A DNA stretch of 64,000 bases, taken from positions 40,563,683 to 40,627,682 of the forward strand of contig JASXTE010000002.1 in the NCBI GenBank assembly GCA_030280995.1, given 5' to 3'. Position 1 is the stretch's first letter, and the number at the start of each line of letters is the position of its first letter. Shown in pieces: positions 17,626-48,306 of this stretch. The stretch comes from Hemileia vastatrix (Eukaryota; Basidiomycota; Pucciniomycetes; Pucciniales; Zaghouaniaceae). A program made the translations under genes and the position numbers. The notes below the pieces were generated by a model. The model made no database searches. It was not told the DNA's origin and was given only the letters and a program-made list of their open reading frames with translations.

Positions 17626-18425
17626 CTATTCAGTATCAGGATGAAAGCTAATAGGATATCCTTTCCAGTCTTCAGGAATGATGAAGTGACGGGTATCGGC
17701 GGGGAATCCAAGAATAGTTGTTGAGCTGATTTTGTTCATTAGTTGACCTATCATTTCTATATGAGTATAGTGAGCTTCAAGTTCAGCGTCAGAAAAAGCT
17801 GGTGCGTTATTGTAGGATAGGGACATAGCGTCATATATAAGACGAAGTCTGGAAAACATTCGCATGGAATGGACAAAGGGTAAAGGAATGTGAACCAATC
17901 CCAAGAAGATGGATTCATTGAAGCCTGACAGGAAGTTACTAAGCAAGAAGAGCATAAGTATTGTGAAGGATACTTACTTGCTAATAAGTTTTGTGGACGC
18001 GCTGACCGTGAAGTAACGGTAACCGCATCAGGAGCAGCTGTAGGGGAGCCTGAGCGCATGGAAGCACTGGAACTCAGAGGGGAAGAAAGTGTAGCGCTAG
18101 GCTGTATGGATATTTCGCGCCTGGGAAAACTAGGAAGTGATGGCGACTCATAAGGAACATTTTTATTATTAGTGGAAATAGTGGGACTAGTGGTGGTAAT
18201 TATGGGAGCGCTACTAGTAGAGCTAGGTGGAAAGCGAATATAACCAGTAGGCTGAAGAGTATTCTGGTTAAGGGAGGTATTGAAAGTTTTGTGGTATCTA
18301 AAGCAACTATTACAGGCAGGTCTAAAAGAGGCATACCCCGGAGGTCTAGAAAATGTACAGTTAAAGTTACGGCGTTTTCAAAATGAGCAAGCTTGATCTC
18401 TGGGAACTGTGCGATATTGAGTCAT
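17626..18425 (-). CDS. Antisense two-exon Zn2Cys6-like gene of Gyp-2 copy B
   Basis: Exon 1 runs 18425 to 17978 and exon 2 from 17924 to 17626. The 53-nt intron (17925-17977) has a GTAAGT donor and a CTGTCAG acceptor, and splicing keeps the frame through a split Ser codon, giving 248 residues. The N-terminus MTQYRTVPRDQACSF is followed by a TGA at the place of a cluster Cys, then RRNFNC, a 14-residue loop with Pro-Pro-Gly, and CNSCFRYHKT, where copy A has the last Cys. Together the copies imply CX2CX6C-X14-CX2CX6C, a Gal4-like zinc cluster. The middle is Ser/Thr/Pro rich. Exon 2 (SDAELEAHYTHIEMIGQLMN) is conserved with copy A. A TATA box lies 40 nt upstream. The single TGA makes this copy probably null. 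Nuclear DNA binding is inferred. Confidence 0.6.
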
Positions 18426-18462
18426 GATGTTAGGATAGAAGAAATTAAGGTTATTAGAAGGG

Positions 18463-18473
18463 CTATTTATAGG
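18463..18473 (-). promoter_or_regulatory. TATA box of the Gyp-2 antisense gene
   Basis: The minus strand reads CCTATAAATAGCCC, about 40 nt upstream of the ATG at 18425, and the interval to the ATG is pyrimidine-rich as in short fungal 5' leaders. Confidence 0.5.
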
Positions 18474-18586
18474 TTAACAATAGCATTATAAAGAAGTCAT
18501 CAGTTGAGCCACGTCTGACTTGAGCGCTGGATGGTTTCTAAGAAGCTAGTAAGAAGCGTTTCTCATAATGAAGAACCCAAGGATTT

Positions 18587-19165
18587 AAAGTAATGACAAT
18601 TCCTTAAGCCAAAATGCAGATCAAGTCTAGAAACTAGGTTTGGGACTTTCCACAAGTATAGGCTAGAGGAACCCCATGAAACAAATTAATGTTATCATGA
18701 TACCATTTATACAACACAAGGTCGTGGGCCCATTACTTTAATTTCATAAATTGAAATATCATATTTATTTATTAAAAATTTATGGAAGAATATTAAATAT
18801 TTGGTGACTCTACAAATCCCCATACTTTTTAGATATACCTAAATAATGTTTAAATTTATTACCTTTTTCTTCTTTTTTTAACTTGTTTATTTGTTGGATT
18901 AACTTTTGACTGATCTGGAAAGAGCAACTGAAATTCTTGAAGTCTTGACAAGATTCCAAACCTGGAGGAGCCTTTGTGGTTTGGTGATTATCGTAAGAAG
19001 AATTCAAAAATGTTTCGATGATTCTATTTCCTAATCCAAAATCGATTATACATCTATGATCCGGGAAATATAATCCATGTCCTTTAATTTTTGCAGGTGA
19101 CGGAATAGGTTGTCCAGTGATAGGATTAATATATGTGAAAATTCAGGTACACCTCTACAAATTTC
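18587..19165 (-). pseudogene. C-terminal remnant of a Tet-like 2OG-Fe(II) oxygenase gene
   Basis: Minus-strand blocks read FSHILILSLDNLF...MDYISRIID and SSYDNHQTTKAPPGLESCQDFKNFSCSFQISQ (18810-19007), in different frames. They align with the remnant at 24300-25380, where the same part reads ILSPAKIKGHGLYFPDHSC and IIDFGLG. From family knowledge this pattern, with the His of HQTTK and the CSFQ tail, resembles Tet-like 2OG-Fe(II) oxygenase domain proteins found in many copies in rust genomes. That assignment is from memory and not certain. The non-coding tail (18587-18810) is the same repeat as 23925-24170. Confidence 0.45.
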
Positions 19166-19792: not shown

Positions 19793-21673
19793 AAAAAGAT
19801 AAAATGACTTACCTGGAGAGATGAGTTGAGAAAAAAGAAATATAAGCAAAATTGTTTGAGTGATGTAGGAAGAGAGGAGAAAACGGATATGAGTGAATAA
19901 AAAAAAGAGATTGACTGAAAAAATACGCGTTTGCTGAAAATATGTGATTTCATGTTGAACTGATGAAAGAAGACACAGAGAGATAAAAAAAATAAGACTT
20001 TAACAGCAAATTCAAAAACAAAAAAAATATGCAAAAAAATTCACCATTATCAGTGAATAACACATGCAAATTGATCATTTGAAGAGAATGAAAATTAAAA
20101 ATTAAAATTGCGTTGAAAAATGTTGGAGTGTTATTGGAAGAATTTTTGCCCTTATACTAGTTGATTGAGAAATAAAAGTGTTGGATATAGTCGGAGGTGA
20201 ATCAACTTGTTCATCTTCATACAGCTCTAACCATTGATCTTTGAGGTCAGCAAGTAGGTTATGAAGTATAGTGCAACACAGAATCCAGTTGATCACCGCC
20301 TCCATTTCAGATTTATTTCTAAAAGGACTTCTTAATTCCCTTAAACTATAAAAACGGCCTTTCAAGATTCCAATAGAATGTTCAATACGGACTCTTGACT
20401 TTGCCAAATGATTTTTGAACTTGGCATTTTGACTGTCTTCTGAAACTGCTCCCCAAGAAGCAGGAAGTACATACTTTCCATTCACATAAGCAGAATCTGC
20501 AAGAAGATACTGATTTTCATCAAAGAATTTTTCAGGTTCATTTGAAATATGCATTCTTTGGAAGACGTAGGAGTCATGACATGAGCCAGGATAGCCAGCT
20601 AATAATGATATAAATTTTTTGTTTACCTCACATATAAGCTGAACAGAAATTGAATATCTATAAAGAAGACATATTTGTTTGTGTTAGTTTCAAAGAGAAT
20701 GAAAGGAGTTAAAAATAATCTACCTCTTTTTACGGTCAAAGTAATTTTTTCCACCTTGAGCAGGTTTCTGGCTCAAAGGAATAGTAGTACCATCAACAAA
20801 ACCAATACATCCTGGGAAGCCCTCTGCTTACATAACCTGAGATGATTTAAGTTTCTCTTCTTTTGTTGGCCAGGTGAGAAGTTGAGATTCCAAGGAGTTG
20901 ATGGAAGTGATACATTGTTTGGTATAAGTGTTAACTGAACCATACCCTAAATCAAAGACACTTTCTAAACGTTTCAAAGCGGCTCCATTACAATTTGAAC
21001 CCAAATGACATAGTGTGATGGCCAATTGAATTGAAGGATGTTGTTGTTCTTTTTGAGAATTATTGTGAAATATGGGATGATCCTGAATAATCTCAAGCAA
21101 TTTAAGGAAACATTCCTGAGAAGTCCTGAACAGATGTCTAAAACTGGGTGTAGATAGGTTAAGAAGTGTTTGGATGGTGTACTTGGGGGTATGAAGTACT
21201 TGAGGCTTTCTGGGAAGAAGGTAACGTTTCGTGGCCATTTTTGATAAAAAGACAAAATCTTCTTCTAGATCAGAATCAGAATTGGAATCAGAGTCCAAGA
21301 GCAGTTCAAGAGCCATGAAAGTCATTGCTTTATGTAATTTATCACGATTTGAAGGTGAGGAAGGCATAACTCTTATATGATATGATATGAAGATGTAAAT
21401 GATGTACGATGTTTTGAGTTATGAAGTGTTATGCTGCGGAGTGCTGCATATGAATAGGATGATGCTGACAAATCAGTGAAATGGGACTTGATGGTGAAAT
21501 CAGCACTTTTTGTTGAGAAAGTGCGGATTTGAGTGAAATAAGTGACTTTTTTAACTTTTGAAATCCACCAGTATTCGGGCTAGTGTGTTTTAGAAATCCG
21601 CACTTAGATAAGTGCCGATTTGGTCAAATTTAAGTGCGGATTTGTAAGTGTGGATTTGCCAGAACTGACACCC
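19793..21673 (-). mobile_element. PIF-Harbinger element, copy 1, 5'-truncated
   Basis: The right terminus matches the complete copy at 56263-60183: subterminal AAATCCGCACTT repeats and an end reading GCCAGAACTGACACCCCCT at 21673. Immediately outside, sequence resumes in the Gyp-3 integrase (AATGACAGATTCACTC). The left side (19793-20100) retains the splice-donor-containing segment seen in copy 2 in the opposite orientation, but no left TIR is visible, so the left end was lost or rearranged. Confidence 0.75.
20102..21367 (-). pseudogene. PIF-Harbinger DDE transposase, one nonsense codon
   Basis: Exon 1 runs 21367-20724 and exon 2 runs 20657-20102, with a 66-nt intron at the same place as in copy 2. 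The protein is nearly identical to the intact copy at 58638-59897 (MPSS.SNRDKLHKAMTFMAL start, HFSTQF end). One TAA near 20828 replaces the Gln codon of VMQAEGFPG. DDE landmarks remain: GFVDGT, LLADSAY and RIEHSIGILKGRF. Exon 1 carries two extra residues in its acidic Ser/Asp run. Confidence 0.85.
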
Positions 21674-22402: not shown

Positions 22403-22428
22403 TTTTTTTTGTTTTTTTAGAGTGAGGG

Positions 22429-23787: not shown

Positions 23788-24299
23788 CACCAAAATTTTT
23801 ATAAGTCATCAATTTCAAATGTCAGATTTGACAATTTCGCAGTACCCTCCACTGCATTTTATTTAAGTAAAGGGTTAAAAAGTATATAAACAACTATTAT
23901 ATATTAATTTCCTTAGCTTTAAATTAATGACAATTCCACTAGCCAAAATGTGGATACATCTAGAAAAAAATGTTTGGGACTTTCCACAAGTGTAGGCCAA
24001 TGAACCTCATGAAAAAAAAAATGTTGTCATGATTTCCATTTATACAACACAGGGTTCTTGACCCATTACTTTATTTTAGGAATTTTTAATATAAGAGTTA
24101 TTTATAAAAGATTTATGAAAAAATAAAAAATATTTGATTACTCTACTCATCCCCATACATTTTTGAGCTACATAAAGTTTTTTTATATCTGTTTAAGTTA
24201 CCTTATTTTTTTACCTTATTGATTTGTTGGATTAGTTTTTGACTAATTGAAAGGAGCATCCAAAATGAGTAAAGTCGTGACAAGATTCTAAACCAGGTA

Positions 24300-25380
24300 G
24301 AGCTTTTGTTGTTTGTTGATTATCCTTTGAAGAGCTCCAAATAGTTTTGATGATTCAAGTTCCCAATCCAAAATCTATTATACAGCTGTGATCTGGAAAG
24401 TATAACCCATGACCTTTTATTTTAGCTGGGGAAAGAATAGGTGGTCCAGTTATCAGATTGATATATGAGAAAATTCCAAAAGTAAGAATATTGGCATCAT
24501 TCCTATTGATATGAATCCTATTGTTGAATCCTCAATGAGTAATAATAACATTTGAAAATAAAAAATGTTTTTTGCTAATTTCTACCTATTAGAAGTCACT
24601 CCAATTTGGTATTCCAACTTTGGTAGCAAGTTGATGATTATTTCAAAAGCTTTATTACTAAATTTTTGAGGAGAAGAGAAAGAAAATTATTGAAAGAATG
24701 TAAGGTGTCCCACAAGCAAAAATCAACATCTTTTTCAGCTTTTGATAAATTTTTAAGTAAAGAATAGATGCCTATGGAAATAAAACTGGTGCCATGATTT
24801 TAAGAAAGAATCATATATTTTCAGACATACCAAGAGAATAGCTTTTAACAAATCCTGGTCTCCAACTAAATCCAATTATAATACCACCCAACAAATTTGT
24901 ATTCCTTAATTGTAAACAAACCAAAGCCATTTTATATAGTGTTCCTATGAGATTGGATAGTTGATTAAATGTTTAATCTTTTGAACCTTTAAAAAATAAT
25001 TTTCTTAAATAAATTGAGGCTTAAAAGAATTTCTGATAACTGCTTTAAATTCATTGTCTCCTGATTTAATTAAATATATTTAATCTTCTGGTAACTCATT
25101 TGGATGAGAATTTTTTTGATCAACTCTAGTTTTATAGTACTTGATATTTGATATATGGCCAAATAAGCAATCCAAATGAGCTTTTTTTTAAATTTCTTTT
25201 ATTCTGCTGACTTCTAACATCATTGTTTTTTTTGATATTTTTGATGATGATTGAAATAAAATTGAATTTGAAAAAGATGATAAAGATGATAAAGAGGATG
25301 ATGATAGAGAAGTAAGAGGTGATTCTGACAAAATAGAAATTTTTTTCTCTGAACAAAAAAAAATTGTGTCAAAAACCAAA
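24300..25380 (-). pseudogene. Tet-like 2OG-Fe(II) oxygenase gene remnant
   Basis: Minus-strand reading through several stops gives LIKSGDNEFKAVIRNSFKPQ, LSNLIGTLYKMALVCLQLRN, NLLGGIIIGFSWRPGFVKS, FFLKIMAPVLFP, then ITGPPILSPAKIKGHGLYFP and CIIDFGLG, with DNQQTTKALPGLESC as the tail. The LRNTNLLGG...GF.WRPG signature and the HQTTK-like tail are those I associate with the Tet-like oxygenase proteins abundant in rust fungi. The upstream 25190-25380 is a Ser-rich leader. Multiple stops and AT-rich decay show it is dead. The identity is recalled, not searched. Confidence 0.45.
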
Positions 25381-28260: not shown

Positions 28261-28889
28261 GCTGAGCGGGGGAGAGAGTGAGTAATGGGATTCGAAGGAC
28301 AACTGAGGGAAGGCTGCCTCTGAGAAGATCTATGATGACTGGGAATGTTGAGATATTTCAAGATGAAAAGGAGAAAAAAAACAGATTATATGGGAAGGGG
28401 TTTTTAATGGAAATGAATAGACAGGATAGGAGTTATCAAAAAGGTAGGGAGGCTGGAACATCCAGAAAGTTGTCCAAGATGTGGTTATGAAAAATTGAGG
28501 ATAAAAATGACAGATAGAGGTGAAATTTGACACGTAAAAAGTCTAATAACCCAATTTTTAGCAAAAATAATTGCGGAAGATAATTGGGGTATAATGACTT
28601 TTATCCGCAATTAAGTTAATTGTGGATGGTCAAAATTGATACCCCTTAATATAAATCTAATTTGGCTTTCCTCAAACTTAAAAATCTCCAAATATCTTCC
28701 TTAAATAAATTTAAGTGCTGAAATAATTTTTAGGTTGCCACATCCTATCTCCAATGAAGAATTCCCTATTTTTACAATTTTTGTAATTAATTGAACACTT
28801 ATTAATCCTCTCTTCATTCTCCTCAACTACAACTAAAAACTTTTCAATTGATCTTATAATCAATATCTTCTTCAACATTTCATCAAAAG
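28261..28889. other. Non-coding flank with a PIF-like terminus at 28646
   Basis: Contains TATCCGCAATTAAG and TTAATTGTGGAT motifs followed by CAAAATTGATACCCCT ending at 28646 and then TAA. This resembles the right end of a PIF-Harbinger-type element related to MITE-1. From 28650 the sequence looks like an AT-rich upstream region leading into the zinc-cluster gene interrupted by Gyp-3. Confidence 0.45.
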
Positions 28890-30581
28890 TGTCAGCCTGG
28901 ATATCCCAAGTACTGAATTAAAAAGTACTTATAAATTGTTTTAAACACATGGACTTTAAATGGAAACAATAAATAAAGTACAAAAGCTATATACATGAGT
29001 GAAATTTATGATGAAATACAATAAAAGCCATTATAACACCTTATATACATGCATATATACACCTTTTTTAAGTTTTACTTACTTAATATTTATTTCGAAT
29101 ATGTTAGGGTAACCTTAAAACCTTAATATAAGGCTACAAAATTTTTAAGTAGACTTAAAGCTGTTGTTTTCATTAGGGGGTATCAAAGTTAGAAATTTGT
29201 AATTCTTTAAAAGGTATTTTACAACACAAAAAGAAAGCCACAAACTTAACACTAATTCTTAGAAAAAAGGTATTTTGGGGGCACAATATGGCATATTTTA
29301 AAAAATAATCATGGTTGATTTGGTGGAGAAAAGAGGTATTTTGAAAAGAAAGATTTCTAACTTTGATACCCCCTATTGTTTTATGTGAAAAACAAGAAAT
29401 GCGCCATAAATCACTTAAAAGTTGAATATATGCACTGTAGATTTAATAATATTAAAAATGAGCCTTGACAGATAAATTTTTCTTGATTAGGACTATTTAT
29501 TTGGTTACTCAAATGCATAAAAATAACACTTTTAAAATATGGTGTTTTCTATGCCAGAAATGGCTTCTGTGTACTGGCCAAATACTGCCTGCACTTTTCC
29601 CATGTGAATAGCTTCATTTTTAGCAAAGTTTGATTTTTCACACTATATTTACCCCACATTCTATGTTCACTGTGGGGAAACACACTAAAATAGGCAACAT
29701 GCGCTTATTTAGTGTCATACTTTAATTATAGGTGAATTGACCTTATTATATGCACTAATTTCATTAATACCCTCAATTTTGGCACCTTTACTTCACTAAA
29801 ACACATAAATTTCCCTAAATTATTCAAGTATTTACCTGTGCAAGAGCCTTCCAAGGAATTTATGTAGTTACCCCATATCTCATGTCCTTTTTTGGGTTTC
29901 TCAGTGGTTTCTCAGTCAACATTGGTTATTTTTGGATGGGGATTTCATTTATTATGTTGTCATAATTAGCTCCATAACTTCTACTTTTGATCCTCCTTAA
30001 TATTGTACAATATTTAGTTTTATTATTTCTTTCTTTAGTCTTTTATTATAAGATATTACAAGCATATACTCTCTTTTTTGCTTATTCTTTATTTTGATGG
30101 ATTATCGCTATTACTCCAGGAATTCATGGGTGATATCATTTTAATTATGTTCTTGGTCAGTATTTATGTTGCTGGAAAGTTTTATTAGCTAGAATGAGGC
30201 TTTATTAGCCTTTTATAGGACTGGTAAATTAAAGGGGTACATTAGAGAATTGTTGGGTATAAAAGGAGGGGGTTTTTGATCTTGTTTTCTACATTATTTA
30301 TCATTACAATTAAAATATATAACCAATAAAATTACAATAAATATCAAAAGTACTTAGAAGGTCTTTGAATAGTATCTGAATTATTACATCTATTTTATAT
30401 CAACTACAAGATTGTACCCCATTTATAATTAGTGATATTAAAGTTACTGAGACCCTCATATTGAGTTAAATTTTAATGCTGATTGGATTTGTACTAAATT
30501 ATTCATATAGGACCATTAAAATATTCTATAAAACTGACTAATCAAGCTATTCATGTCTCTGTACTTAACCTCAGCCTGACA
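28890..30581 (+). repeat. Gyp-3 5' LTR, carrying MITE-1
   Basis: Starts TGTCAGCCTGGATATCC, ends CAGCCTGACA. It is 1692 bp including a 200-bp MITE; without it the length matches the 3' LTR. A TATA-like GGGTATAAAAGGAGGG near 30255-30272 fits a promoter about 300 bp from the LTR end. Confidence 0.88.
29175..29374. mobile_element. MITE-1, 200 bp, inside the Gyp-3 5' LTR
   Basis: AGGGGGTATCAAAGTTAG...CTAACTTTGATACCCCCT with ATT on both sides (29172-29174 and 29375-29377). The 3' LTR has the uninterrupted TTTTCATTGTTTTATG at 37410-37425, so the MITE landed after the retroelement integrated. Confidence 0.92.
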
Positions 30582-31174
30582 ATTAGGGACCTTTCCTCAA
30601 GAATTCTGTTGGTTATCTCCCAGTAAGTAAAAATTCAAAAAGAGGCTACAAAAAATAAAATCCCTATAGAAATATTTGTATAATTACAAGAGGCTGGGGT
30701 CACTTATATAGTTATTTCAGAAAAATAAGCCCTGTTATATAATAAAGTAGTGACATTGAATCAACAATTTTACCACTCCTTTAACGTAAAAATTGTTATT
30801 AGTGAGAGTCTGTCAATAGACAAATTAATTTTGTGATCTTTGCAGATGATAAACTAGATAAATAATAATTGTTTATTTTACAATGGACTCTTAATCCCTT
30901 CTTATTGACCAGCTATATAAAGTGGCCACATTAAATTATATTGGACTTTTGGAACTTATAAATTCACTTAATTCCTACAAGTAATCAATTAATTTTTCTT
31001 CAGTGGTGTTACATAATACTGATAAAACTCCTTTTTGAAGTTTTAAATAACTCATATTTCAATTCTTTGATTTAAATTCCACATAAAAATGTGACAACAT
31101 AGAAAATGTGAGTAACAAGGTAAAACCTTATAATCTATGACCTAGAGCTGACAAAAACATTTCAGGACACTGAA
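30582..31174 (+). other. Gyp-3 leader
   Basis: Non-coding sequence between the 5' LTR and the first gag codons. No TGG-type tRNA primer site is visible next to the LTR end. Confidence 0.5.
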
Positions 31175-33370: not shown

Positions 33371-33990
33371 AGCTTAAAAAATTAAAGATAAAAATCATGA
33401 TACTTACAAAATCACACCTATTAGAGTGCCTGTTATTATATGTGGTAAAGAAATTAATTCCATTCTTGACAATGGGGATGCAGGTAGTGTAGTTTCTACT
33501 AATACATAAATGAAACTGGATAGTAAGTATAAAGAAAAAGTGGAACCTGCACAGACAAAGAACTGGAGGGTTTTGTTTCAGTATTACATCTAACTGGAAA
33601 ATACAAAGCTGCCTTATTCTTTAAATATAATCATGGATATGTAAGAGCAGTATGTGAATTTTTAGTAGTGTATGATAATAATTGTTGTGATTAGTTTATT
33701 ATTGGCAATGACCTATTGACCAAATTTGCATCAAACTGGATCCTGAAAATATTTGCTTCACTATAGGCGTGAATGGAAAAATAATATTCAAGATTTTCTC
33801 TGAAAATTCAGTTTATTCCATTTCCCCTAAAGAAGAATAACTCAAAGGTGGAAGAACCACCTCTGAAGTGGTAGAAATGGAAAATGAAATCCAAAAAGCC
33901 TCTTTCAGTCCTCAAATCTCAAAAATTGAAGAAAGCAATATTTTGAGTTTGATAAAATCTTATCCTATGGCATTTGCTCATGGTTAAAAT
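33371..33990 (+). pseudogene. Gyp-3 protease, decayed
   Basis: INSILDNGDAGSVVSTN (about 33450-33510) is the retropepsin active-site region with the usual Asp-Ser/Thr-Gly changed to Asp-Asn-Gly. CDxFIIGNDLLTKF follows near 33690-33730. Stops and a shift disrupt it. Confidence 0.65.
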
Positions 33991-33999
33991 GAACTAGGA

Positions 34000-35553: not shown

Positions 35554-35562
35554 AACAATGCA

Positions 35563-36970
35563 TTGGAAGAAAGTAAATGGTCAATTGAAGATGGATACAT
35601 ATATTACAGAAAAAAGCTAAGTAATGTGATAGTTATACTAACATCTATGAAAGAGTTGATGTTTAGTACCTTTCATGATAACATCTTAGCTAGTCAATTT
35701 AACTTTAACAAAACATTAACTAAAGTTAAAAATAAAGCCTGGTGGATAAAAGTGAAAGAATATGTACAAAAATACATTGACACATGTGACTCTTGTCAAA
35801 AATCCAAAAGATTGACTGGGAAGAGAGCTGGGTTGTTACAAAAAATAGAGCAGCCAAAAGCTCCATGGGAAATCGTAAACATGGACTTTGTCACTGTCTT
35901 TCTATTAGCAGGAAAAGAAAGTTTCAATTCTTGCTGGGTAATTGTGGATAGACTAACAAAAATGTGTAAATTTATCGATACCCATAAAGAGGTATCTGAA
36001 AAATATTTGGAATTGACATGTGGGACTCAAATGATGAATACTGCTGGTCTCCCCAAAGCCATAATCTCTGACAGAGACCCTAAATTTACTTTAGAGTTCT
36101 GGAAATCTTTGATGGAAGTATCAGCTGGTCAACTGAAATTGTACACAGCACACCATCCACAAACTGATGGGCTGTCTGAGAGAATGTTACAGACTCTGGA
36201 AGATATGACTGGAAGATATTGTGCCTTTGTATTAGAATACAATGACAATGAAAAATTCACACATGACTGGGTAACATTAATTCCTGGACCTGAATTTCCT
36301 TATAATAGCACAACTCATTCTGTAGCAGAGAAAAAACCAGTTGAACTCTGGCTGGGATATGTACAAAATACCCCAGTAAATCATTTAAACAAATCACCAA
36401 GGCTAGATATACACCCTGGAACTAAATCTTTTATTCATATGCAACAAATTTGTCAAAAGCATGCAGAGGAATGCATACAAAGAGCATTTTAATATGAAAA
36501 GAAAAGTTAGGATAAATCGCAAAAGAATTTGAATTCAAAAAAGGAGATGAAGTCCTAATTCCAACACTACTTTTTATCTTAGAAGTTAATGTTAAATTAA
36601 AGGATCCTTTTGTAGGACCTTTTTTAGTCAACAAAATTGCTGGTAATAATTATTTGTATATCATATTATATGCCCCATATGATAGAAAACATCCTCTTTT
36701 CCTTATCTCATTATTAAAACCTTACCATGCAATTGATCCAGACTTATTTCCAAAATAAAGAGGAAGGTGTAAAAAGCAACCTGAAGAAATTGTTGAAAAA
36801 TCAGAGATAAAAAAAACTCAATAAAAGAATCATTACAAAAGAGAAAGGAACTAAGTATTTATTAAGATATAAGGGAAAATCAAATGAATTTGTTAAATGG
36901 ATACCTCTAAAAAGAAATTTAAAATCTATCCTCCCTTCTTAAAAAATTTAAACAGAAATAAAACTCTATT
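35563..36970 (+). pseudogene. Gyp-3 integrase with degraded chromodomain-like tail
   Basis: The 309-residue open block (35563-36492) includes a zinc-binding region (HDNILASQF with the first His kept, CDSCQKSKR), catalytic Asp in NMDFVTV, Asp in ISDRDPKF and Glu in LSERMLQ. After a TAA at 36490 the tail reads ILEVNVKLKDPFVGPFLV (the GPF module) and YDRKHPLFLISLLKPYH. RYKGKSNEFVKWIP near 36870-36910 is a chromodomain-like end matching the fragment at 22298-22330. This is the best kept part of Gyp-3. Confidence 0.85.
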
Positions 36971-37130
36971 AAACCAGCTGAGGGGTTAGAAACAATACTC
37001 ATAATATTTTATTTTTTTTTATTTCTTTAAAGAATTAATCTTTAATGCTACATAATTTTCTGAATACCTGAAAAATAAAATAAACAAATGTATAAATTAT
37101 CATTTTTTATTATTTTTTTGGGTGGGAAAT

Positions 37131-38620
37131 TTTCAGCCTGGATATCCCCATGACTGAATAAAATGTACTTATAAACTATGTTAAACACATGGACTATAAA
37201 TGGGAATAATAAATAAAGGTACACAAGTGGTATACATAAGTGAAATTTATGATGAAAACAATAAATGCCATTATAACACCTTATATACATGCATCTATCC
37301 ACCTTTTATAAGTCTTGTGTTCCTAATATTTTTTTGAAATATGTTAGAGTAGCCTTAAGAACCTTAATTATAAGGCTACATAATCTTTAAGTTGACTTAA
37401 AGCTGTTGTTTTCATTGTTTTATGTGAAAAACAAGAAATGCACTATATATCACTTAAAAGTTGAATATATGCGCTATAGATTTAAAAATATTAAAAATGT
37501 GCCTTGGAAGATCAATTTTTCTTAATTAGGACTATTGATCTGGCTACTCAAATGCATAAAAATAACTCTTTTCACATTTGGTGTTTTTTATGCCAGAAAC
37601 GGCTACTGTGTACTGGCCACATACCGCCTGCATTTTTCCCATGTGAATAGCTTCATTTTTAACAAATTTAGATTTTTCACACTATAATTACCCCACATTC
37701 TATTCCCACTGTGGGGAAACACACTAAAATAGGCAGCAGGTGCTTATTTAGTGTCCTAATTTAATTATAGGTGCATTGACCTTATTATATGCACTAATTT
37801 CATATACTGACTTAACCTTGAACCTTTAATTAACTACCAAACTTAAATTTTCCTGAATTAGCCAAGGATTTACCTGTGAAAGCGCCTTCCAAGTACTGCA
37901 TGTAGTTACCCCATATTTCACGTCCTTTTTTGGGTTTCTTAGTGATTTCTCAGTCAATATTGGTTATTTTTGGATGGGGATTTCATGTAGTATATTGTCA
38001 TAATTAGCCCCATCACTTCTACTGTTAATCCCCCTTAATGATTTGTAATATTTATTGTTATTTTTTCTTTTTTTAGTCTTTTATTTTAAGATATTACACA
38101 CATATACATTTTTTTTACTTATTTTCTTGTTTTGATGGATTATCAGTATTACTCCAGGATTTTGGTCAGTTATATCATTATAAGTATGTTATTGGTAATT
38201 TGTTATGTTGTTAGAAAGCGTTATTAGCTAGAATGAGGCATCATTAGCCATGTAAAGGACTGGTAAATTAAAGGGTTACATTGGAGAATTACTGGGTATA
38301 AAATAAGGGGGTTTTCAGTCTCGTTTTCTATATTCTTTATCATTACAATCAAAATAAATAACCAATAAAATTACAATATATATTAAAATTAATTCTAAAG
38401 TCTTTGAATATTATCTGATTTATTACATCTATTTTTTACCAACTATAAGATTTTAACCCATTTATAATTAGTGATATTAAAATTACTGAGACCCTTATAT
38501 TGAGTTATATTATAATACTGATTGGATTTGTACTACAGTATTCATGAATGACCTTTAAAATATTCTAGACAACTGACTGATCAAGCTATTCATGTCTCTG
38601 TACTTAAAATCAGCCTGAAA
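37131..38620 (+). repeat. Gyp-3 3' LTR
   Basis: Preceded by a GGGTGGGAAAT purine tract. It starts TTTCAGCCTGG (TGTCAGCC in the 5' LTR) and ends CAGCCTGAAA. 1490 bp, matching the 5' LTR minus its MITE. Numerous point differences from the 5' LTR indicate an old insertion. Confidence 0.88.
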
Positions 38621-39283
38621 AAAGACCTTGCTGTCCCATTTGAACTTTGTACCAAATATCAGGTACCTTGTCTGATTTCTAACCCTGGTCTTCCTGTAAG
38701 AACTGCCTGTGATCTATGCAGTTTTAAGAAAATTAAGTGTAACTGTCCAATTATGCCTTCCAGAACTATTTTCTATAATATAACTGCTTCCCTTTGTGAA
38801 CCAACAATACCTAAAAAGAGACTATCCATAACTCCCTTCTTCTTTCAAAAAATAAAGGTCAAAACAGATTCTTCTTCTAAAAAATCTCATCCTAAGATTT
38901 CTTCTCCTTCTCAAGATCCTACTTCTATATTGCCAGCACCAAACTTTGGATTTTCTGAAACTTTATATCCTGGCTCAAAAAGTTAGTCCTTTATTTTAAT
39001 TTTATTAATCCTCCTACTAATTCCACATCCATCTACAAATTCTCTTAAAGCCCCTAAATTCTTCTCCTAAGCTATTGAAAACACCAACACCAATGACATA
39101 AGCAAGGTGAAGAATGGTTACATTAATCACTAACAAAAATTTCATAGATATCTCTTTTTTGATTTTTGTGATGATATGAAGCATAAATTTTTAACATATT
39201 TTCACAAAACCCATGCTAACAATATTGAAGATTTAATGAGGATAATAATCTTAATGCAAAGCTTTGATAGAAATGTTGAATGA
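38621..39283 (+). pseudogene. Zn2Cys6-like small gene split by Gyp-3
   Basis: Reads DLAVPFELCTKYQVPC, a 12-residue loop with Pro-Gly, and CDLCSFKKIKCNC, then PIMPSRTIFYNITAS and a Ser/Pro-rich part to a stop at 38986. The cysteine spacing is CX2CX6C-X12-CX2CX6C with the first Cys changed to Phe. A likely second exon at about 39160-39283 reads FCDDMKHKFLTYFHKTH and IEDLMRIIILMQSFDRNVE. Upstream of the retroelement the frame continues as FNISSK, where ATT may replace the start ATG (28877-28879). The architecture matches the antisense genes of Gyp-2. Probably a dead copy of an element-borne or host zinc-cluster gene. Confidence 0.55.
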
Positions 39284-40691: not shown

Positions 40692-40696
40692 CTCCC
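40692..40696. repeat. Gyp-1 target-site duplication, left
   Basis: CTCCC, repeated at 49083-49087 directly after the 3' LTR. Confidence 0.85.
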
Positions 40697-41472
40697 TGTC
40701 ACGCGCCACGTGACACTTGAGGCGAAATTAACTCAATAAATCAATAATATCGAGTCCTAAATCTATACTCGAAGCGCAGAAAGCAATTCTCCATAGCAAC
40801 TGCGATTTTCCTTTGTGTACTTACTATTTAACTGCGCTAGCCTAAACTCTAAATCTAAATTAGCCAATCTCCCAATAGGGTACCTTAGTCCTTTTCAATA
40901 AGCAACGCACAGCGCTAGGATCAACGAAATAGTATAGTAGTAGTTTTTTTTCATTAAAGTTTTGTTAATTAATTAAAAGGGGTAAATTGAGCATAGACGG
41001 ATATTTAGTGGAGAGGGTCTAAGTGTATGTTAGTAATGGTCAATGGAATGGGAATGCTGCGATGGAAGGGAGGTCAATGCGAGGAGGAACAAAGGATATA
41101 AAAGGAGTTGGGTATTTGGTTCGATATTCCTTAGAATTAAATTATAATATTGTATTTACATTAATAGTGGTAAATCCTTAAAAAGTTAAATCATTGTTAT
41201 TGTATCTTTCTTTTACCTTCTCAATATTCATTTCTAAATCCTAAATCTTTGATTATTGAGTTTCCAACCCTTTGTGAGATTTTAAGAATTATTATTACCT
41301 TGGAACTAGTTTATAATTCTTCTCGATCGAACCTCGAACCTATAGCTATTACTTCGAGTGACCTTCGAATCATTTCCTCGAATCATTCCTCTGTGCTTTG
41401 AAGAAGTTTCTAAAATCCCTCATCTCACTTAGAGGAACATCCTCGACCTTGTGCATAGGTCGTCCGGTGACA
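40697..41472 (+). repeat. Gyp-1 5' LTR
   Basis: Begins TGTCACGCGCCACGTGACAC, itself containing the inverted GTCACGCG/CACGTGAC palindromes, and ends GGTCGTCCGGTGACA. It holds the TATA box at 41097 and the predicted transcript start. 776 bp, same as the 3' LTR. Confidence 0.95.
41097..41104 (+). promoter_or_regulatory. TATA box of Gyp-1
   Basis: TATAAAAG within GGATATAAAAGGAG. A start about 30-36 nt downstream falls at or just before the AGAATTAAATTATA block at 41133, which fits the self-priming model. Confidence 0.65.
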
Positions 41473-41473
41473 G

Positions 41474-41487
41474 TATAATTTAATTCT
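41474..41487 (+). promoter_or_regulatory. Self-priming primer-binding site of Gyp-1
   Basis: TATAATTTAATTCT, starting two bases after the LTR end, is the exact reverse complement of 41133-41146 in the LTR. No TGG, as needed for a tRNA 3' CCA, is present. Known Tf1/sushi elements prime reverse transcription with the folded 5' end of their own RNA, and the position and length fit that. Confidence 0.7.
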
Positions 41488-41543
41488 CCGTAGCTCTCAT
41501 TCTTTGCACTACTACGTCCTTTTAGGTGTTTCTAAAATTTTAA

Positions 41544-42731
41544 ATGGCACCTGTTCAACGCACTCCTCCTACGGGCGCTACTACTAGAGCTCGCGCTAGA
41601 GGCAGGCCAACAGCCACAAGGTCTGTTTCTCGCACTCACTCTTTGGAACCACTCGACCTTAGGGAACGGCAACATTCAGTTCAATCTGTAGAAGACATTC
41701 CAAAAGATTTTGAGGACTCTAGTGATGAAGAAGAAGGAGAGGATACAATGCATGAGGCACCATCCGCCCCTGCCAATCACCCTTCTGGCCAATCCTCAGA
41801 ACTGGGGCCATCTAACTCTCTGGAAGATTTCATGAGACTTTTTATGAAAACCCTTTCAAATCCAACGTCTTCAGAGGGATCTAAGTTCAAAATTCCTTCT
41901 ATGAAATCTCCTGACAAATTCGACGGAGATCACCCCGACAGATTGCAACCCTTTTTGCAAACCTGCAAGCTACTGTTCCATAATGATCCTCGAACCTTTA
42001 ACAGCGACCGATCAAAGGTTGTTTACGCTTCTTCATTCCTAGCTGGAAAAGCAGCAAGATGGTTCGAACCTTATCTACTCATGCTTTCTTCGACAGAAAC
42101 CCACTTACTTATCAATAATTGGGAAAAATTTGAGGACCAACTTTTTACGTTGTTTGGGGACCCTAATGAAACGGACAACGCGGAAATTGAACTTGATTTT
42201 CTTCACATGAGTAATAATGGTAAAGCTTCTGAATATATCTCGAACTTCAGAGCACTTCAAACTCGAGTAGGTTGGAATGATGCTGCCCTTAAGTATCATT
42301 TCAAGAAAGGACTTCCTTCGAGGATTCTAGATCAATTAAATCTTCACGGTCAGAAGATGACTACCTTAACGGACTTAATGGATCGAACCCTCGAACTTGA
42401 CGGCGTTTATCAAGGATGACTTCAACATCGTCGATATGCCAACAAATCTCAAGGCCTAAATTTTAAATCGGGACCTTCTTCACACCCACGACCAAATCAA
42501 TCCTCCTCGACTCAATCCAAACCCAATAAGGGAAAGGATAAACCTCGACCAAAAGGCTCGACCTCAGGCAATATCAGCAAAGTACTGGATCCTAAAGGGG
42601 AACTTAAAGAAGCTGAGAGGAAGAGACGAGCAGATAATGGGTTATGTATGTATTGTGGGGGTAAGCACAAGTTGGAATACTGTGTAAAGTTGAAGGAAAG
42701 AGAAGGTACTAGTTCGAAGTCAAAAAACTAG
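41544..42731 (+). CDS. gag: Gyp-1 Gag, with one in-frame TGA
   Basis: ATG at 41544 opens MAPVQRTPPTGATTRARARG, an Arg-rich N-terminus, then an acidic stretch (EDSSDEEEGED). The Gag core reads FQTCKLLFHNDP..., AARWFEPYL, NNWEKFEDQLF and KASEYISNFRALQTRVGW. A TGA lies at 42417-42419. The same frame continues to a short zinc knuckle CX2CX3HX4C (CMYCGGKHKLEYC, from 42645) and ends at TAG 42729-42731. The full frame is 395 codons. The same TGA occurs at the same position in the minus-strand copy (1053-1055), so it may be old or tolerated. Gag assembles the particle; the knuckle should bind element RNA. Confidence 0.88.
42722..42731 (+). promoter_or_regulatory. -1 frameshift site between gag and pol
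   Basis: A AAA AAC in the gag frame followed at once by TAG. A slip of -1 enters the frame reading KKLVDRLLVCK and then the protease. The same site is kept at 741-750. Confidence 0.65.
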
Positions 42732-45700
42732 TAGATCGTTTACTTGTGTGCAAAGCAAACTATCTTATCTCTCCCAGTGCACAGAACCTCCATGTCTTAA
42801 GGACTGGAGTTGCTTTAAACCGCTTGAGATTCATTCTTTTTAAGGAGGATATCCCCTTCAGTTGTCTTATAGACTCTGGAGCTTCAATTTCTTTTGTTAG
42901 TTTATCTTTTGCCGAGAAGCTTCAACTAACATTTACAGATATCAATCGAACTCCCATCTATTTGGTCGAATCAGAGGAACCCAAATATTGGGTAAGTAAG
43001 AAAGTTTTATGGGTTTTCAACTTTCTGAATTTTCCCCCCTTCGAGTGGGAATTATCAGTCTTGGACGCCCCAAGGATGGACGATACCATTCTTGGCCATG
43101 ACTTTTTAACGCATTGGAATTCCGAAATTGATTGGACTAGGGGATGGATCACCCCACGCTCTAAGTATATTTCTGATTCTTCAATGCAGGTCAATAGGGA
43201 GTTAAACAACCCGCCTGACAACGTCCTGCTAGAGGACAAATCTCTGCCAGATGACTTTCAAGAATCTGTACCTTCTTTAAATGAGCAATTGGCTAACCCT
43301 TCTAGCTCGATGACTTCACTCGAAGAGGATTTAAATTGCCTCGAAGTAATCAAATTTTGCTCTCTCAATACAGGTATCCCCTCCACAGATTCTCTCGAAG
43401 ATGAAGAGGACGACCAAATAAACGTTGAAGCCATCAAATCAACTCTACCAGAAATCTACCACAATTTCCTCGATGTTTTCTCAATCCGCAAGGCCAATAA
43501 GTTACCACCTCATTGACCCTACGACCATCAAATAGAGTTAATAGGCCCAGTACCTCCGGCAGGTCCTGTCTATTCTTTATCGAAGGACGAATCTCAAGTT
43601 CTTCGAGACTACATTGCAGAGAATGTAGCCAAAGGTTTCATCAGAGCCAGTAAATCTCCAACCGGCTCCCCTGTCCTCTTTGTAAAAAAGAAGGACGGTA
43701 GTCTTAGGTTGTGTGTTGACTATAGAAAGCTCAACACAGTCACGAAGAAGAATGCATATCCTGTTCCTCCTATGTCATTACTTCTTACCCTTTTCAATGG
43801 TGCTAATTTCTTTTCTAAAATTGATCTTAGAGGCGCTTACAATCTTATTCGCATTGCGGAAGGTCATGAACCACTGACTGCAATGCGCACTAGATTTGGT
43901 AGTTTTGAATATTTAGTTATGCCTTTTGGATTATGTAACCCACCTTCAACTTTTCAAACTTTTGTTAATGATATCTTTCAGGATGTTGTTGAACAATTTG
44001 TAGTCGTCTATTTAGATGATATTTTAATATTCTCGAAAAAACTGGATGAACATATTCATCATGTTCGACAGGTCCTTAATCGTCTTCGAGATCATGGTCT
44101 CTACGCCAAGCATAATAAATGCGAATTCCACCTCAAATCAATTGATTTTTTGGGTTTTACGTTGTCCACTGACGGTTTAGTCATGGATGATAAAAAAGTC
44201 CAGAAAATCCTGGAATGGCCTGAGCCCAAAAACATTAAATCACTCCAAGGATTTTTGGGTTTTGCAAACTTCTATAGAAGATTTATTAAAGATTACTCTA
44301 AAACTATTTCCAATCTTACTTCTCTTCTTAGAAAAGATATTCCTTTTGTTTTTACTTCTACAGCACGAAAGGAATTCAAAGCACTAAAAACGGTGTTCAC
44401 CACAGCCCCAATTCTTCGGCATTTTGATCCTTCTGCCTCGACAATAGTTGAGACAGATGCTAGCGATTATGCTATTGCAGGGGTCACTTCTCAATTAGAT
44501 CCTGAAACAAAATTTTTTCATCCTGTTGCTTTTGAGTCACGCAAACTCATAGCCGCGGAATTAAATTATGAAATTCATGACAAAGAGCTTTTAGCTATTA
44601 TCCATTGTCTTAAAAAATGGTGTTCTTTTCTTCTCAGCCTAGATAGTCCTTTTCAAATTTTAAAACATCATAATGCTTTGAAATACTTCATGTCTTCTAA
44701 AGTGTTAACCAGGCGTCAAGCCAGGTGGGCTGAATTTTTGACTGAATTTTCTTTCTCTATTTCCTATTGCCCAGGAAAAAACTGCATTGTCCCAGATATC
44801 TTGTCACGTTGGGACGACGTTTACCCACAGCGGGGGGACACATTTGCTGACAAGAACCCAGCAAATGTGCAATCAATCTTCAACAAATCAATGTTAACGA
44901 CTCATCAACTTAATTCGATGACAATTCAATCTTTTCGAAATCCACTATCCAACATCCTTGAAGCTCAGTCGAAGGACGATTATTGTTTAGGGTTAAAAGA
45001 CAAAATACTCTCGAAGCAAGGGGCCAAAAGATTTAGTATTGAATCAGGTCTATTAGTCTTCGAAGGTAGAGTAGTCATACCCGACAACAATGAGATAAAA
45101 TTATGGATTTTCAACAGTCGACATGATTCTCCGTTAGCTGGTCATTTTGGGGTTGATAAAACCTACCAGTTAATAGCGAGGGATTTCTTCTGGCCAGGTA
45201 TGACCAAGGAAATCAAGGCCTATATAAAAGCTTGTTACGAATGTAATAGGAATAAGGCTCCCCGTCACCGGAAGCATGGGTTGCTTCAACCACTTCCTAT
45301 TCCCTCTAAACCTTGGGAATCTTTATCGATGGATTTCATTTCTCAACTTCCTATTTCTAATGATTTTGATGCTATATTAGTAATAGTAGATAGATTCTCA
45401 AAAATGTCTATTTTTATTAAAACCACTACTACTGCTACAGCAGAAGATTTGTCAAAATTGTTTCTAGAATATGTATTTTCTAAACACGGCTTACCAAATG
45501 ATATTATTTCAGATAGAGGCTCATTGTTTGTATCCACATTCTGGACCCAACTGTGTTGACAACTCAATATCACGAGGAATCTCTCCACGGCCTATCACCC
45601 TGAAACCGATGGTCAAACAGAAAGAGTTAACCAAATCCTCAAACAATATCTTTGAATGTATGTCAGTTACCAACAAGACAATTGGACCACATGGCTACCA

Positions 45701-46378
45701 TTGGCCGAATTTTCTTATAATAACTCGACTCATTCTTCGACACGACAATCTCCCTTCGAAACCATTTATGGACGACATCCTCGATTCAACTCAATTCATG
45801 TAGGAACTAATCATCCTGCGGAACATTATCTTCGAACTATATCACGACTCCAAGAAGAACTTAAAACAAATTTGGAATCAGCAATTCAAAGATACAAGGA
45901 ACAGGCCGACAAACATCGACAATCTGCTCCTTCCTTTAAACCAGGCGACAAAGTATGGCTCGATGCACGAAACATCCGAACAACAAGACCATCAAAGAAA
46001 CTGGCTGAAAAGCGCTTGGGACCATTCGAAATCGACTCTGAAGTCTCTAAAACTGCATTTCGACTCAAGTTACCTCCTAAATGGCAGGCAATTCACCCTG
46101 TTTTCCATGTATCTCTCCTGGAACTGGCTCGAGAAATATACCCGGGCAAGAACCAAACCCCTCCGGAACCGGTCGAAGTAGAAGACCATCTAGAGTGGGA
46201 AGTAAGTCGTATCCTTGATTCAAGAATACGCAAGGGGAAACTTCAATACCTCGTGGAATGGGAAGGCTTCCTCAATGACTCAGACAAAACATCTTGGGAA
46301 CCAGCCATCAATGTTTCTAACGCTCCTGAACTCCTAAAATCTTTTCATTCGAAATATCCTTTAAAACCAAAACCTTAA
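42722..46378 (+). pseudogene. pol: Gyp-1 Pol polyprotein: protease, RT, RNase H, integrase, chromodomain
   Basis: One frame throughout, broken by TGA at 43514, 45557 and 45653. Protease: CLIDSGASISFVS. RT: GSLRLCVDYRKLNTVTKKNA, MPFGLCNPPSTFQ and Y-L-D-D at 44009-44020. RNase H: ETDASDYAIAGV and LNYEIHDKELLAI. Integrase: H...H and CYECNRNK zinc region, catalytic Asp in SMDFISQ, Asp in IISDRGS, and Glu in DGQTERVNQ, the last inside the segment between two stops. The GPF module reads KRLGPFEIDSEVSKTAFRLK. The chromodomain (about 46178-46340) has WEVSRILDSRIRKG, YLVEWEGF and SWEPA, and would steer insertion to modified chromatin. Each stop stands where the family has Arg (PPHRPYDH, LCRxLNI, QYLRxY). 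Confidence 0.92.
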
Positions 46379-47272
46379 AATTTCTTTATTTAAAATTTTC
46401 TTTTCTTTTCTTTCTTTCTTTGAAATCTAAAACATCTCTTAAATTTCTTAGCCTTGTTTTCTTTTTTCTCTCTTCTTTTTCTTTCTTCTCCTTCTATAAA
46501 ATTTCCTCCAAAACCAACTAAAATTAAAATCAAAATTAAAATTAAATAAAATTAAATTAAATAAAATAAAATAAAATAAAATAAAATAGAATAAACATAA
46601 ATAATAAAATAAAAAAACTCATAAATCTCTCTAAATATTTTCCTTCTTTTCTTTTTCAATTCTTTAAATACATTCTTTTCTTAAATTTAAAATTCTCTTC
46701 AAAAAACTTCTCTTCCAAAAAATTTTTATTCTCTCTTTTAAAAACTTTCTTTCCTTCAAATCATCAAATCTTGTACGACACGACCATTTCCTGGAACTTA
46801 ACATACAACCTCTAAAATCTCCCTATAATAATTCTTCTTTCAAACTCTCTTAAATTCTAAATTCTGTTTTTTTTTCTTTTCTTTCTTCTTACTCTCTTTT
46901 CAACTAAAATTTCTTAAAAAAAAAAAAATTTCAAAATGCTCAATTTAACAAATTCATCTCAATCACAAAACCGTTTCTTTTTTTTTCTCCCTCTTTTCTT
47001 ACATAAAAATTTTCCTTTTTAAAACACTAAAACCTCCTTCAATTAAAACAACCTTTCTTTTTCTTTCTTTAAAATTCCTCTTTCAAATTCTATAAATTTT
47101 TTTATTTAAAACTTCTTTTTTCTTTTTTTCTTTTTCTCTCTCTCTCAAATCTTATAAAATTAACAACATTCACCTACAAAAAAAAAATAATACTAATAAT
47201 AAATAAAATTAAAATAAAATAAAATTAAAATACAATTTTTTTTTCTCTACTTCTTTACATCTCCTTTTCTTT
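46379..47272 (+). other. T/C-rich and (TAAAA)n low-complexity spacer
   Basis: Between the convergent ends of pol (plus) and the antisense gene (minus). It includes AAATTAAAAT and TAAAA simple repeats at 46510-46620 and 47190-47235 and long pyrimidine runs. No gene is supported. Confidence 0.65.
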
Positions 47273-48127
47273 TCAAATCTTTTCTTTTAACTTCTCTCGA
47301 ACCAATCTTTTCATTTTCTCCAAAACTACACTTATTTCCTTCCTGCATTTCTCAAATACCTCCTCCTCTCCCATCTCCAATAGCTCCTCTGCCACGTCGA
47401 AGGAAGCAGCATCAATAATAGCGTCGACCTCCCCACATAGTTCTTCCGCGAACCTTACTCGTCGACCTTTACGAGGTTTCTTCGACCACACCTGGTCCAG
47501 GGTGTCTTCGGGCTCTTCAACTACTTCCGTGGCTGGAGGGTTTGCCTCAGTTGGTATAACCGGCGCAGGCTCCGCAATCGGCTCTTCAAGGTTATTCAAT
47601 GTCTAAAACAAAAAAAATCTCATCAGTAACTTCATCCTTAAAATAAAACAATTAAAACTTACCTCAAAGATGGGGTCAGGCTCTAGAAATAACCTGGGCG
47701 CCACTTCGACCTCTACCTCTCTCTCTTCCTCATCGTCCTCAATGACCACCCGTCGTTTCTTGGGTGCCCGCCCTGGAACAGGGACTTCATCTTCATCCTC
47801 CTCCACCAATTCGTCGACCTCTTCCTCAACACCTCGCTTCGAACTCATGGCCTGGGTTACCCAGGTTGAGATCTTGTTGTTCAACTCCTTATCATTTTCC
47901 CCCACCAATTGTTCATCTTCGATCGAGACATCCCAAATGTCTTCGACCACCTCTTTGGTCTTCGGAACTACCCAAAACTTAGTTTTTGTAAATCGTTTTT
48001 CGATTTCCGCGTTCTTCATCAACGCATTGCATGCCACTCGCCGCCAACGGCAAAACTCGCATTTCTGGCGAGGGCCTCGAGTCGCCGTACTTTCGACACA
48101 GAAATATTCCATGCTTTCAGAAGCCAT
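47273..48127 (-). CDS. Antisense two-exon gene of Gyp-1 with CX2CX6C motif
   Basis: Exon 1 runs 48127-47663 (155 codons) and exon 2 runs 47602-47273. The 60-nt intron 47603-47662 has a GTAAGT donor and a TTTTAG acceptor and ends in a stop if not removed; splicing gives a 264-residue protein. The N-terminus MASESMEYFCVESTATRG is followed by QKCEFCRWRRVACNAL, a CX2CX6C motif. The centre is acidic (VDELVEEDEDEVPVPG) with a basic APKKRRV stretch that could be a nuclear localisation signal. The C-terminus has KGRRVRF and a long charged helix. It lies between pol and the 3' LTR on the opposite strand and has its own TATA box. I know no named family; a nuclear or DNA-binding role is inferred. Confidence 0.7.
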
Positions 48128-48296: not shown

Positions 48297-48306
48297 TCCG
48301 AGCATC

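What the first reader, a model, noticed from the sequence alone, without database searches (positions are those of the whole stretch)
17626..48127. Two unrelated gypsy families each carry an antisense, spliced gene with a CX2CX6C zinc-cluster motif
Seen: in Gyp-1 (minus strand 48127-47273, 264 residues after removing a 60-nt intron) and Gyp-2 copy B (minus strand 18425-17626, 248 residues after removing a 53-nt intron) a gene lies opposite to pol, between pol and the 3' end. Both have a TATA box upstream, one GTAAGT intron and an N-terminal CX2CX6C. In Gyp-2 the two copies together imply a Gal4-type CX2CX6C-X14-CX2CX6C. Known: antisense accessory ORFs exist in some plant gypsy elements, and Zn2Cys6 factors are fungal regulators. 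Inference: rust retroelements acquired or share a zinc-cluster regulatory gene, possibly controlling element or host transcription, and this occurred in lineages with different RT types (YLDD against FIDD).
Basis: partly seen in the sequence, partly recalled or inferred. Interest (0 to 1): 0.85.

Follow-up and report, generated by a model that had tools for sequence, protein, structure and literature searches.

The report
Antisense zinc-cluster genes in fungal retrotransposons
Two families of fungal jumping genes each carry, on the opposite strand from their other genes, a small spliced gene for a probably zinc-binding protein that selection has preserved; its arrangement suggests that the element brings its own gene regulator.

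Summary
Gyp-1 (a chromovirus) and Gyp-2 (a different gypsy element) each carry a one-intron gene antisense to pol, between pol and the 3' LTR. GT-AG splice sites are kept in 41 of 41 Gyp-1 and 39 of 40 Gyp-2 copies examined. Purifying selection is clear in Gyp-1 (dN/dS 0.12 and 0.22; 0.40 and 0.18 in eight copies picked by another gene) and between diverged elements (pS 0.74-0.87, pN 0.16-0.23); within the Gyp-2 B subfamily copies look near neutral. Pfam's only hit for intact Gyp-2 exon 1 is Zn_clus, just under its cut-off; Gyp-1 has no convincing hit. A third multicopy zinc-cluster gene lies at 38600-38983, host element unknown. In one pair of relatives the Gyp-1 gene-plus-LTR end has a different history from gag-pol. 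Best guess: an element-encoded LTR regulator, analogous to HTLV-1 HBZ; expression and function are untested. Antisense accessory genes are known (plant aORF-3R, Botrytis brtn); I found none described with a zinc cluster.

The parts
40696..41472 (+). Gyp-1 5' LTR
   Evidence: 98.3% identical to 48306-49082 over 777 bp; CTCCC on both outer flanks
41544..42419 (+). Gyp-1 gag
   Evidence: Pfam Retrotrans_gag, Ty3_capsid
43709..45559 (+). Gyp-1 pol: RT, RNase H, integrase
   Evidence: Pfam RVT_1, RT_RNaseH, Integrase_H2C2, rve
45656..46378 (+). Gyp-1 pol end with chromodomain
   Evidence: Pfam Chromo 2.3e-13, SH3_Tf2-1 4.5e-19
47663..48127 (-).
48128..48197 (-). 5' part of Gyp-1 exon 1, out of frame in the window copy; in relatives it is coding and holds the start of the first CX2CX6C
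47603..47662 (-). intron of the Gyp-1 antisense gene
   Evidence: GTAAGT and AG in 41 of 41 copies, length 53-75 nt
47273..47602 (-). Gyp-1 antisense gene, exon 2
48288..48296 (-). TATA box of the Gyp-1 antisense gene, just inside the 3' LTR border
   Evidence: TATA-like in 40 of 41 copies
48307..48325 (.). inverted repeat at the LTR edge beside the antisense TATA box
   Evidence: exact TGTCACG-N5-CGTGACA in 34 of 41 copies
48306..49082 (+). Gyp-1 3' LTR
11376..17017 (+). Gyp-2 copy B gag-pol region (the gag call is by position only)
   Evidence: Pfam RVT_1 and RNase H on 13898-15463; no Pfam match on 11376-12002 or 16205-17017
17978..18425 (-). Gyp-2 B antisense gene, exon 1 (in-frame stop inside)
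17925..17977 (-). intron of the Gyp-2 B antisense gene
   Evidence: GT in 40 of 40, AG in 39 of 40
17626..17924 (-). Gyp-2 B antisense gene, exon 2
18464..18471 (-). TATA box of the Gyp-2 antisense gene
   Evidence: TATAAATA in 36 of 40 copies
9900..10712 (-). decayed antisense gene of Gyp-2 copy A
   Evidence: tblastn 47.9% identity to exon 1 of B; alignment
38600..38983 (+). third zinc-cluster coding piece, at the outer edge of another element's LTR; host element and orientation unresolved

Best explanation
Each element carries its own transcription unit, read from a promoter at its 3' end back towards pol, that makes a nuclear zinc-cluster protein. The N-terminus folds around two zinc ions held by six cysteines and binds DNA, probably in or near the element's own LTR; the middle (acidic with a KKRR stretch in Gyp-1, Ser/Thr/Pro-rich and fast-changing in Gyp-2) and the conserved second exon serve for activation or repression and partner contact. 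The element thereby sets its own expression, as HTLV-1 does with HBZ. Shown: the gene, its intron, six cysteines, and constraint on the protein. Inferred: transcription, nuclear location, zinc and DNA binding, the LTR target, and the direction of regulation.
For: Full double CX2CX6C in relatives of both elements, with the six Gyp-1 cysteines kept in 38, 40, 41, 41, 41 and 41 of 41. Constraint: Gyp-1 dN/dS 0.117 (exon 1) and 0.219 (exon 2), third codon positions 2.6-4.9 times as variable as the others; eight copies picked by the chromodomain ORF 0.398 and 0.175; diverged copy pS 0.87/0.74 against pN 0.16/0.20; Gyp-2 A against B exon 2 pS 0.87, pN 0.23. Zn_clus is the only Pfam family listed for Gyp-2 exon 1 in 3 of 3 copies given (15.9-17.9 bits; 20.4 for a 49-residue piece; cut-off 21), and all four solved chains listed for a 61-residue Gyp-2 piece are Gal4 (two), Lac9 and the ethanol regulator, E 1.8-4.2 (that the last is a zinc-cluster factor is recalled). 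TATA boxes kept. In one pair of Gyp-1 relatives the gene diverges together with the LTR and not with gag-pol.
Against: No RNA evidence was available. Gyp-1 has no convincing Pfam match: in two copies Zn_clus is at E 1.3-2.6, behind Death_3 at 0.056-0.060 (also under its cut-off), and L049 has no Zn_clus match; its separate halves match nothing and its PDB search of a 51-residue piece found nothing. The window's own Gyp-2 pieces match no Pfam family. A profile search of the Gyp-2 exon 1 alignment in the PDB found only PHD fingers at E about 1. AlphaFold models are useless (mean pLDDT 39.3 and 29.4). Raw divergence among Gyp-1 copies is no lower in exons (0.066, 0.062) than in intron (0.070) or LTR part (0.048); the signal lies in codon positions. 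In the eight chromodomain-picked copies exon 1 contrasts only modestly with other frames (0.40 against 0.69-0.76). Within the Gyp-2 B subfamily there is no frame-specific constraint. The LTR link rests on one pair of elements.
Confidence: 0.55

Rival explanations
1. The protein is an accessory nucleic-acid-binding or assembly factor (a nucleocapsid-like helper) rather than a transcription regulator.
For: Cysteine-rich basic N-terminus; no significant match of Gyp-1 to any DNA-binding family.
Against: Six cysteines in CX2CX6C pairs are the spacing of zinc clusters, not of retroviral CCHC knuckles (recalled); Zn_clus is the only Pfam family near its cut-off for Gyp-2 exon 1 and for the third gene.
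Confidence: 0.15
2. The protein antagonises host silencing or defence, for example by occupying chromatin of silenced copies.
For: Very many places (first-look candidates: 6,428,053; candidates are not confirmed copies); faster amino-acid change than pol (69% against 88% identity in one pair), which the mosaic history explains equally well.
Against: No direct evidence; a defence antagonist need not keep a zinc-cluster spacing.
Confidence: 0.15
3. The antisense RNA itself is the functional product (dsRNA or interference) and the protein is incidental.
For: Antisense regulatory RNAs are discussed for other retroelements (PMC7264820, passages seen).
Against: Codon-level constraint, and intron boundaries and reading frame preserved while the intron varies in length.
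Confidence: 0.04
4. A chance open frame opposite non-coding sequence.
For: The pol-strand frame opposite Gyp-1 exon 1 is also open in 31 of 41 copies and has low dN/dS (0.19 in exon 1, 0.26 in exon 2), because third positions coincide.
Against: That mirror frame is closed in exon 2 (open in 1 of 41); the gene frame continues across a conserved intron, holds six cysteines and has the lower dN/dS.
Confidence: 0.01
5. Each family captured a host zinc-cluster gene separately, and copies now serve the host (domesticated) rather than the element.
For: No convincing homology between the two proteins.
Against: The gene sits in 8 of 8 Gyp-1 copies picked by chromodomain, hits lie on many contigs, and damaged copies are common.
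Confidence: 0.05

Closest known systems
Antisense accessory genes of plant gypsy elements (aORF-3R: maize Grande, rice RIRE2, Silene Retand, PvRetro13)
   Same: Antisense gene between pol and 3' LTR, present in most copies of a family, conserved (PMC7264820: passages and section 5 read)
   Different: Fungal-type host; one intron; double CX2CX6C pattern. In the main text of PMC7264820 'zinc' and 'intron' occur 0 times
brtn of Boty / BcGypsy1 in Botrytis cinerea (Zhao et al. 2011)
   Same: Additional antisense gene in a fungal gypsy element
   Different: Ascomycete; I did not see the original paper, only passages citing it in PMC7264820, PMC8365987 and PMC4227169; its sequence could not be compared
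HTLV-1 HBZ
   Same: Antisense transcript from the 3' LTR coding for a transcription regulator (starts of abstracts; that the main form is spliced is recalled)
   Different: bZIP, not zinc cluster; retrovirus; no common ancestry claimed
Zn2Cys6 (Gal4-type) fungal regulators, PF00172
   Same: Six cysteines as two CX2CX6C units; weak Pfam and PDB matches
   Different: Gap of 12 and 14 between the units; encoded by retroelements; short proteins; in Gyp-1 and the third gene the basic unit is second

Membership tests
aORF-3R class of antisense accessory genes | Lies between pol and 3' LTR, antisense | tested here: met
   Gyp-1: gene between 46378 and LTR 48306. Gyp-2: in the one copy whose LTRs I delimited (C34) the ATG lies 1.66 kb before the 3' LTR
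aORF-3R class of antisense accessory genes | Present in most copies, conserved as protein | tested here: met
   Gyp-1: 8 of 8 copies picked by the chromodomain ORF, out of 149 listed; dN/dS. For Gyp-2 the share of copies with the gene was not tested
aORF-3R class of antisense accessory genes | Own antisense transcript | not testable with these tools
   No RNA data; only TATA boxes
Zn2Cys6 / PF00172 | Two CX2CX6C units, six cysteines | tested here: met
Zn2Cys6 / PF00172 | Score above Pfam's gathering cut-off (21 bits) | tested here: not met
   Gyp-2 exon 1 17.9, 17.9 and 15.9 bits in 3 copies, 20.4 for a 49-residue piece, window pieces no match; Gyp-1 8.6 and 9.6 bits in 2 copies, L049 no match; the third gene 18.3 bits, and 22.5 (passes) for a 46-residue piece
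Zn2Cys6 / PF00172 | Zinc and DNA binding | not testable with these tools
   Sequence data only
Zn2Cys6 / PF00172 | Fold of the Gal4 cluster | tested here: inconclusive
   AlphaFold mean pLDDT 39.3 and 29.4; no fold search made
brtn of Boty | Sequence homology to brtn | not tested
   Sequence not available here
HBZ | bZIP domain | tested here: not met
   No bZIP family among the Pfam matches up to E 10

The most novel reading that the evidence does not exclude
Fungal LTR elements of separate lineages carry zinc-cluster regulators that recognise their own LTR, and this gene plus its LTR forms an exchangeable module: a relative next to the window shares gag-pol with Gyp-1 (86.7-94.7% identity in 300-base tiles) but has a different gene region (66-72%) and LTR (78-84%), with the break at the end of pol. 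In Gyp-1 and the third family the two halves of the zinc cluster stand in reversed order relative to Gal4 and PPR1. Element-encoded zinc clusters may outnumber the host's own (against 119).
Probability: 0.3. Interest if true: 0.85.

Novelty: new variant of a known kind. Interest (0 to 1): 0.72.

Why it matters
Antisense accessory genes of retrotransposons have long been known without a function (PMC7264820 says their function is not known). These encode a protein whose cysteine pattern points to one, in an abundant family under strong selection, and the gene-with-LTR mosaic gives a test by sequence alone: if the protein recognises the LTR, the two should covary across subfamilies. It would also mean that TE-encoded zinc-cluster proteins need to be separated from host regulators when such genomes are annotated.

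Tried and rejected
Chance frame: rejected for Gyp-1. Homologs elsewhere: three searches of the large protein collection, with exon 1 of Gyp-1 and with alignments A2 and A1, found nothing at E <= 0.001; I do not know how many fungal proteins that collection holds, so this says little. NCBIfam and PDB for Gyp-1: only matches I take as chance (SidJ) or none. Structure prediction failed, so no fold search was made. Locating the host element of the third zinc-cluster gene by searching a copia RT and the Gyp-3 integrase: I compared the lists by eye only, not exhaustively, and saw no convincing neighbourhood. That Gyp-3 itself carries the third gene: rejected, the piece starts at the outer edge of its right LTR. 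Common descent of the Gyp-1 and Gyp-2 proteins: not supported. Mosaic history for Gyp-2 A against B: not supported (integrase pS 0.61 against 0.51-0.87 in the gene). Literature: searches; no paper listed there appears to describe a zinc-cluster gene in a retroelement, judged from listed titles and abstract starts only; subscription papers are mostly not held.
Full report
Where the window lies.

Gyp-1. A chromovirus with LTRs 40696-41472 and 48306-49082 (98.3% identical, flanked by CTCCC), gag, RT, RNase H, integrase and chromodomain on the + strand. Exon 1 was searched in the genome: 150 places scored out of 6,428 first-look candidates, 137 of 150 without a stop (these are the best-scoring 150 and so biased). 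I fetched 40 of the 149 other places, deliberately including 8 of the 13 with stops, and aligned them with the window copy.

The start. From there exon 1 reads MNCPTPTP..., and the cysteines at 28, 31, 38, 51, 54 and 61 make CX2CX6C-X12-CX2CX6C, kept in 38, 40, 41, 41, 41 and 41 of 41. With the upstream start, exon 1 is open in 30 of 41 and exon 2 in 27 of 41.

Selection on Gyp-1. Pooled pairwise dN/dS (Nei-Gojobori) in the gene frame is 0.117 for exon 1 and 0.219 for exon 2; the two other frames of the same strand give 1.1-1.7. The mirror frame on the pol strand gives 0.19 and 0.26 because third positions coincide; it is open in exon 1 (31 of 41) but not in exon 2 (1 of 41). Raw divergence is similar in exons (0.066, 0.062), intron (0.070), LTR part (0.048) and leader (0.086), so the signal is in codon positions, not in overall level. 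All 8 carry the gene; exon 1 from codon 22 is open in 7 of 8, exon 2 in 5 of 8, both in 4 of 8; all six cysteines in 6 of 8; dN/dS 0.398 (other frames 0.69-0.76) and 0.175 (other frames 0.94-1.11). Against a diverged relative just left of the window (L049), a fetched Gyp-1 copy (L009) has exon 1 pS 0.87 and pN 0.16, exon 2 pS 0.74 and pN 0.20; L049's six cysteines and GTAAGT-AG intron are kept.

A mosaic. Between window Gyp-1 and that relative, 300-base tiles are 86.7-94.7% identical from 41296 to 46395, 66-72% from 46396 to 48195 and 78-84% in the tiles of the LTR and leader. Some low tiles are A+T-rich spacer, matched only in part and one out of order. Pol pS is 0.19 and gag 0.32 against 0.74-0.87 in the gene. 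Equal ages would not give such different synonymous divergence in neighbouring genes, so the 3' part (spacer, antisense gene, LTR) has another history, most simply by recombination. This is one pair.

Gyp-2. Copy B's gene has an in-frame stop in the first cysteine cluster; copy A is further decayed. In the genome 150 places were scored of 2,053 candidates. In 39 of the 149 other places plus the window: exon 1 has 448 nt in 39 of 40; GT in 40 of 40, AG in 39 of 40; cysteines 13, 16, 23, 38 and 41 in 39, 29, 40, 40 and 39 of 40, and the sixth (48) in 30 of 40 by my count of the rows. So the double motif with X14 is real. Within this subfamily dN/dS is 0.73 and 0.60, not distinct from other frames (0.68-0.81 in exon 1, 0.51-1.2 in exon 2): these copies mostly carry changes made since insertion. 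Between A and B the constraint shows: first 47 codons 0.284 (other frames 0.43-1.39), the Ser/Thr/Pro-rich middle 0.56 (no contrast), exon 2 pS 0.87 against pN 0.23 with identity by codon position 0.72, 0.79, 0.39. One copy, on C34, has 1,339-bp LTRs at 11551312-11552650 and 11561915-11563253 and the gene's ATG at 11560253, so there the gene is inside the element, 1.66 kb from the 3' LTR.

What the protein looks like. The only Pfam match to Gyp-2 exon 1 in the three copies given is Zn_clus, E 0.0033-0.014, below the cut-off; a 49-residue piece gives 20.4 bits; the window's own two pieces match nothing. Four solved chains are listed for a 61-residue piece: Gal4 (two), Lac9 and the ethanol regulator, E 1.8-4.2, while the profile of five sequences found only PHD fingers at E about 1. 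Gyp-1 matches Zn_clus only at E 1.3-2.6 in two copies, behind Death_3 at 0.06, and not in L049. In Gyp-1 and in the third gene it is the second half that matches the first half of the model, and the third gene's two halves align to PPR1 in swapped order (E 0.12-5.3); for Gyp-2 the order is unclear. That the Gal4 spacing is CX2CX6CX5-12CX2CX6-8C is recalled.

A third gene. At 38600-38983 (+) lies a frame with ELCTKYQVPCLISNPGLPVRTACDLCSFKKIKC: five of six cysteines, with X12. It starts at the outer edge of the right LTR of a third element (LTRs about 28889-30581 and 37131-38620, about 86% identical; ends placed by eye). 150 places were scored of 5,951 candidates; apart from the window's own they are 55-69% identical. 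Its host element and strand are unresolved. Its 46-residue cysteine piece passes the Zn_clus cut-off (22.5 against 21 bits); the whole frame does not (18.3).

Host background. Zn_clus itself has 13 matches at E <= 0.001 in the whole genome, all over the cut-off (150 scored of 3,253 candidates); the tool's control over 14 named genomes rang in 0. The search reads single exons and will miss split domains, so the count of host genes is a lower bound.

Mechanism. Shown: gene, intron, TATA boxes, cysteine pattern, protein constraint. Inferred: expression, nuclear location, zinc and DNA binding, LTR target. The arrangement resembles HTLV-1 HBZ (starts of abstracts). Kinship to HBZ is not supported, as no bZIP is found; kinship to Botrytis brtn could not be tested. 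Filing: an antisense accessory gene of the aORF-3R type, with a zinc-cluster-like protein that does not formally pass PF00172 in Gyp-1 or Gyp-2.

Noticed in passing
38600-38983 (+): Third multicopy zinc-cluster coding family (150 places scored of 5,951 first-look candidates), cut at its 5' side by a third gypsy element; host element unknown.
   Followed up: partly
28889-38620: Third gypsy element (integrase ORF 35563-36492) with LTRs of about 1.5-1.7 kb, about 86% identical; related integrases elsewhere in the genome have open frames up to 1,978 aa.
   Followed up: partly
48307-48325: 19-bp inverted repeat at the LTR edge, 10 bp from the antisense TATA box, exact in 34 of 41 copies: a candidate binding site.
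   Followed up: partly
G000 contigs C472, C511, C313, C446, C632, C698, C520, C89, C696, C738, C104: 12 of the 13 whole-genome Zn_clus matches lie within the first 111 kb of contigs other than the chromosome-sized C34; these may be small unplaced or contaminating contigs (lengths not checked).
   Followed up: no
19929-21622 and 58468-60151 (-): Two copies (95.6% identical) of a repeat with two ORFs each; from recall they resemble a PIF/Harbinger-type transposase.
   Followed up: no
18584-19144: Repeat at which Gyp-2 copy B breaks off (38 of 39 fetched copies match the window only up to 18582 or 18583, one to 18584); 78% identical to 23918-24476.
   Followed up: no
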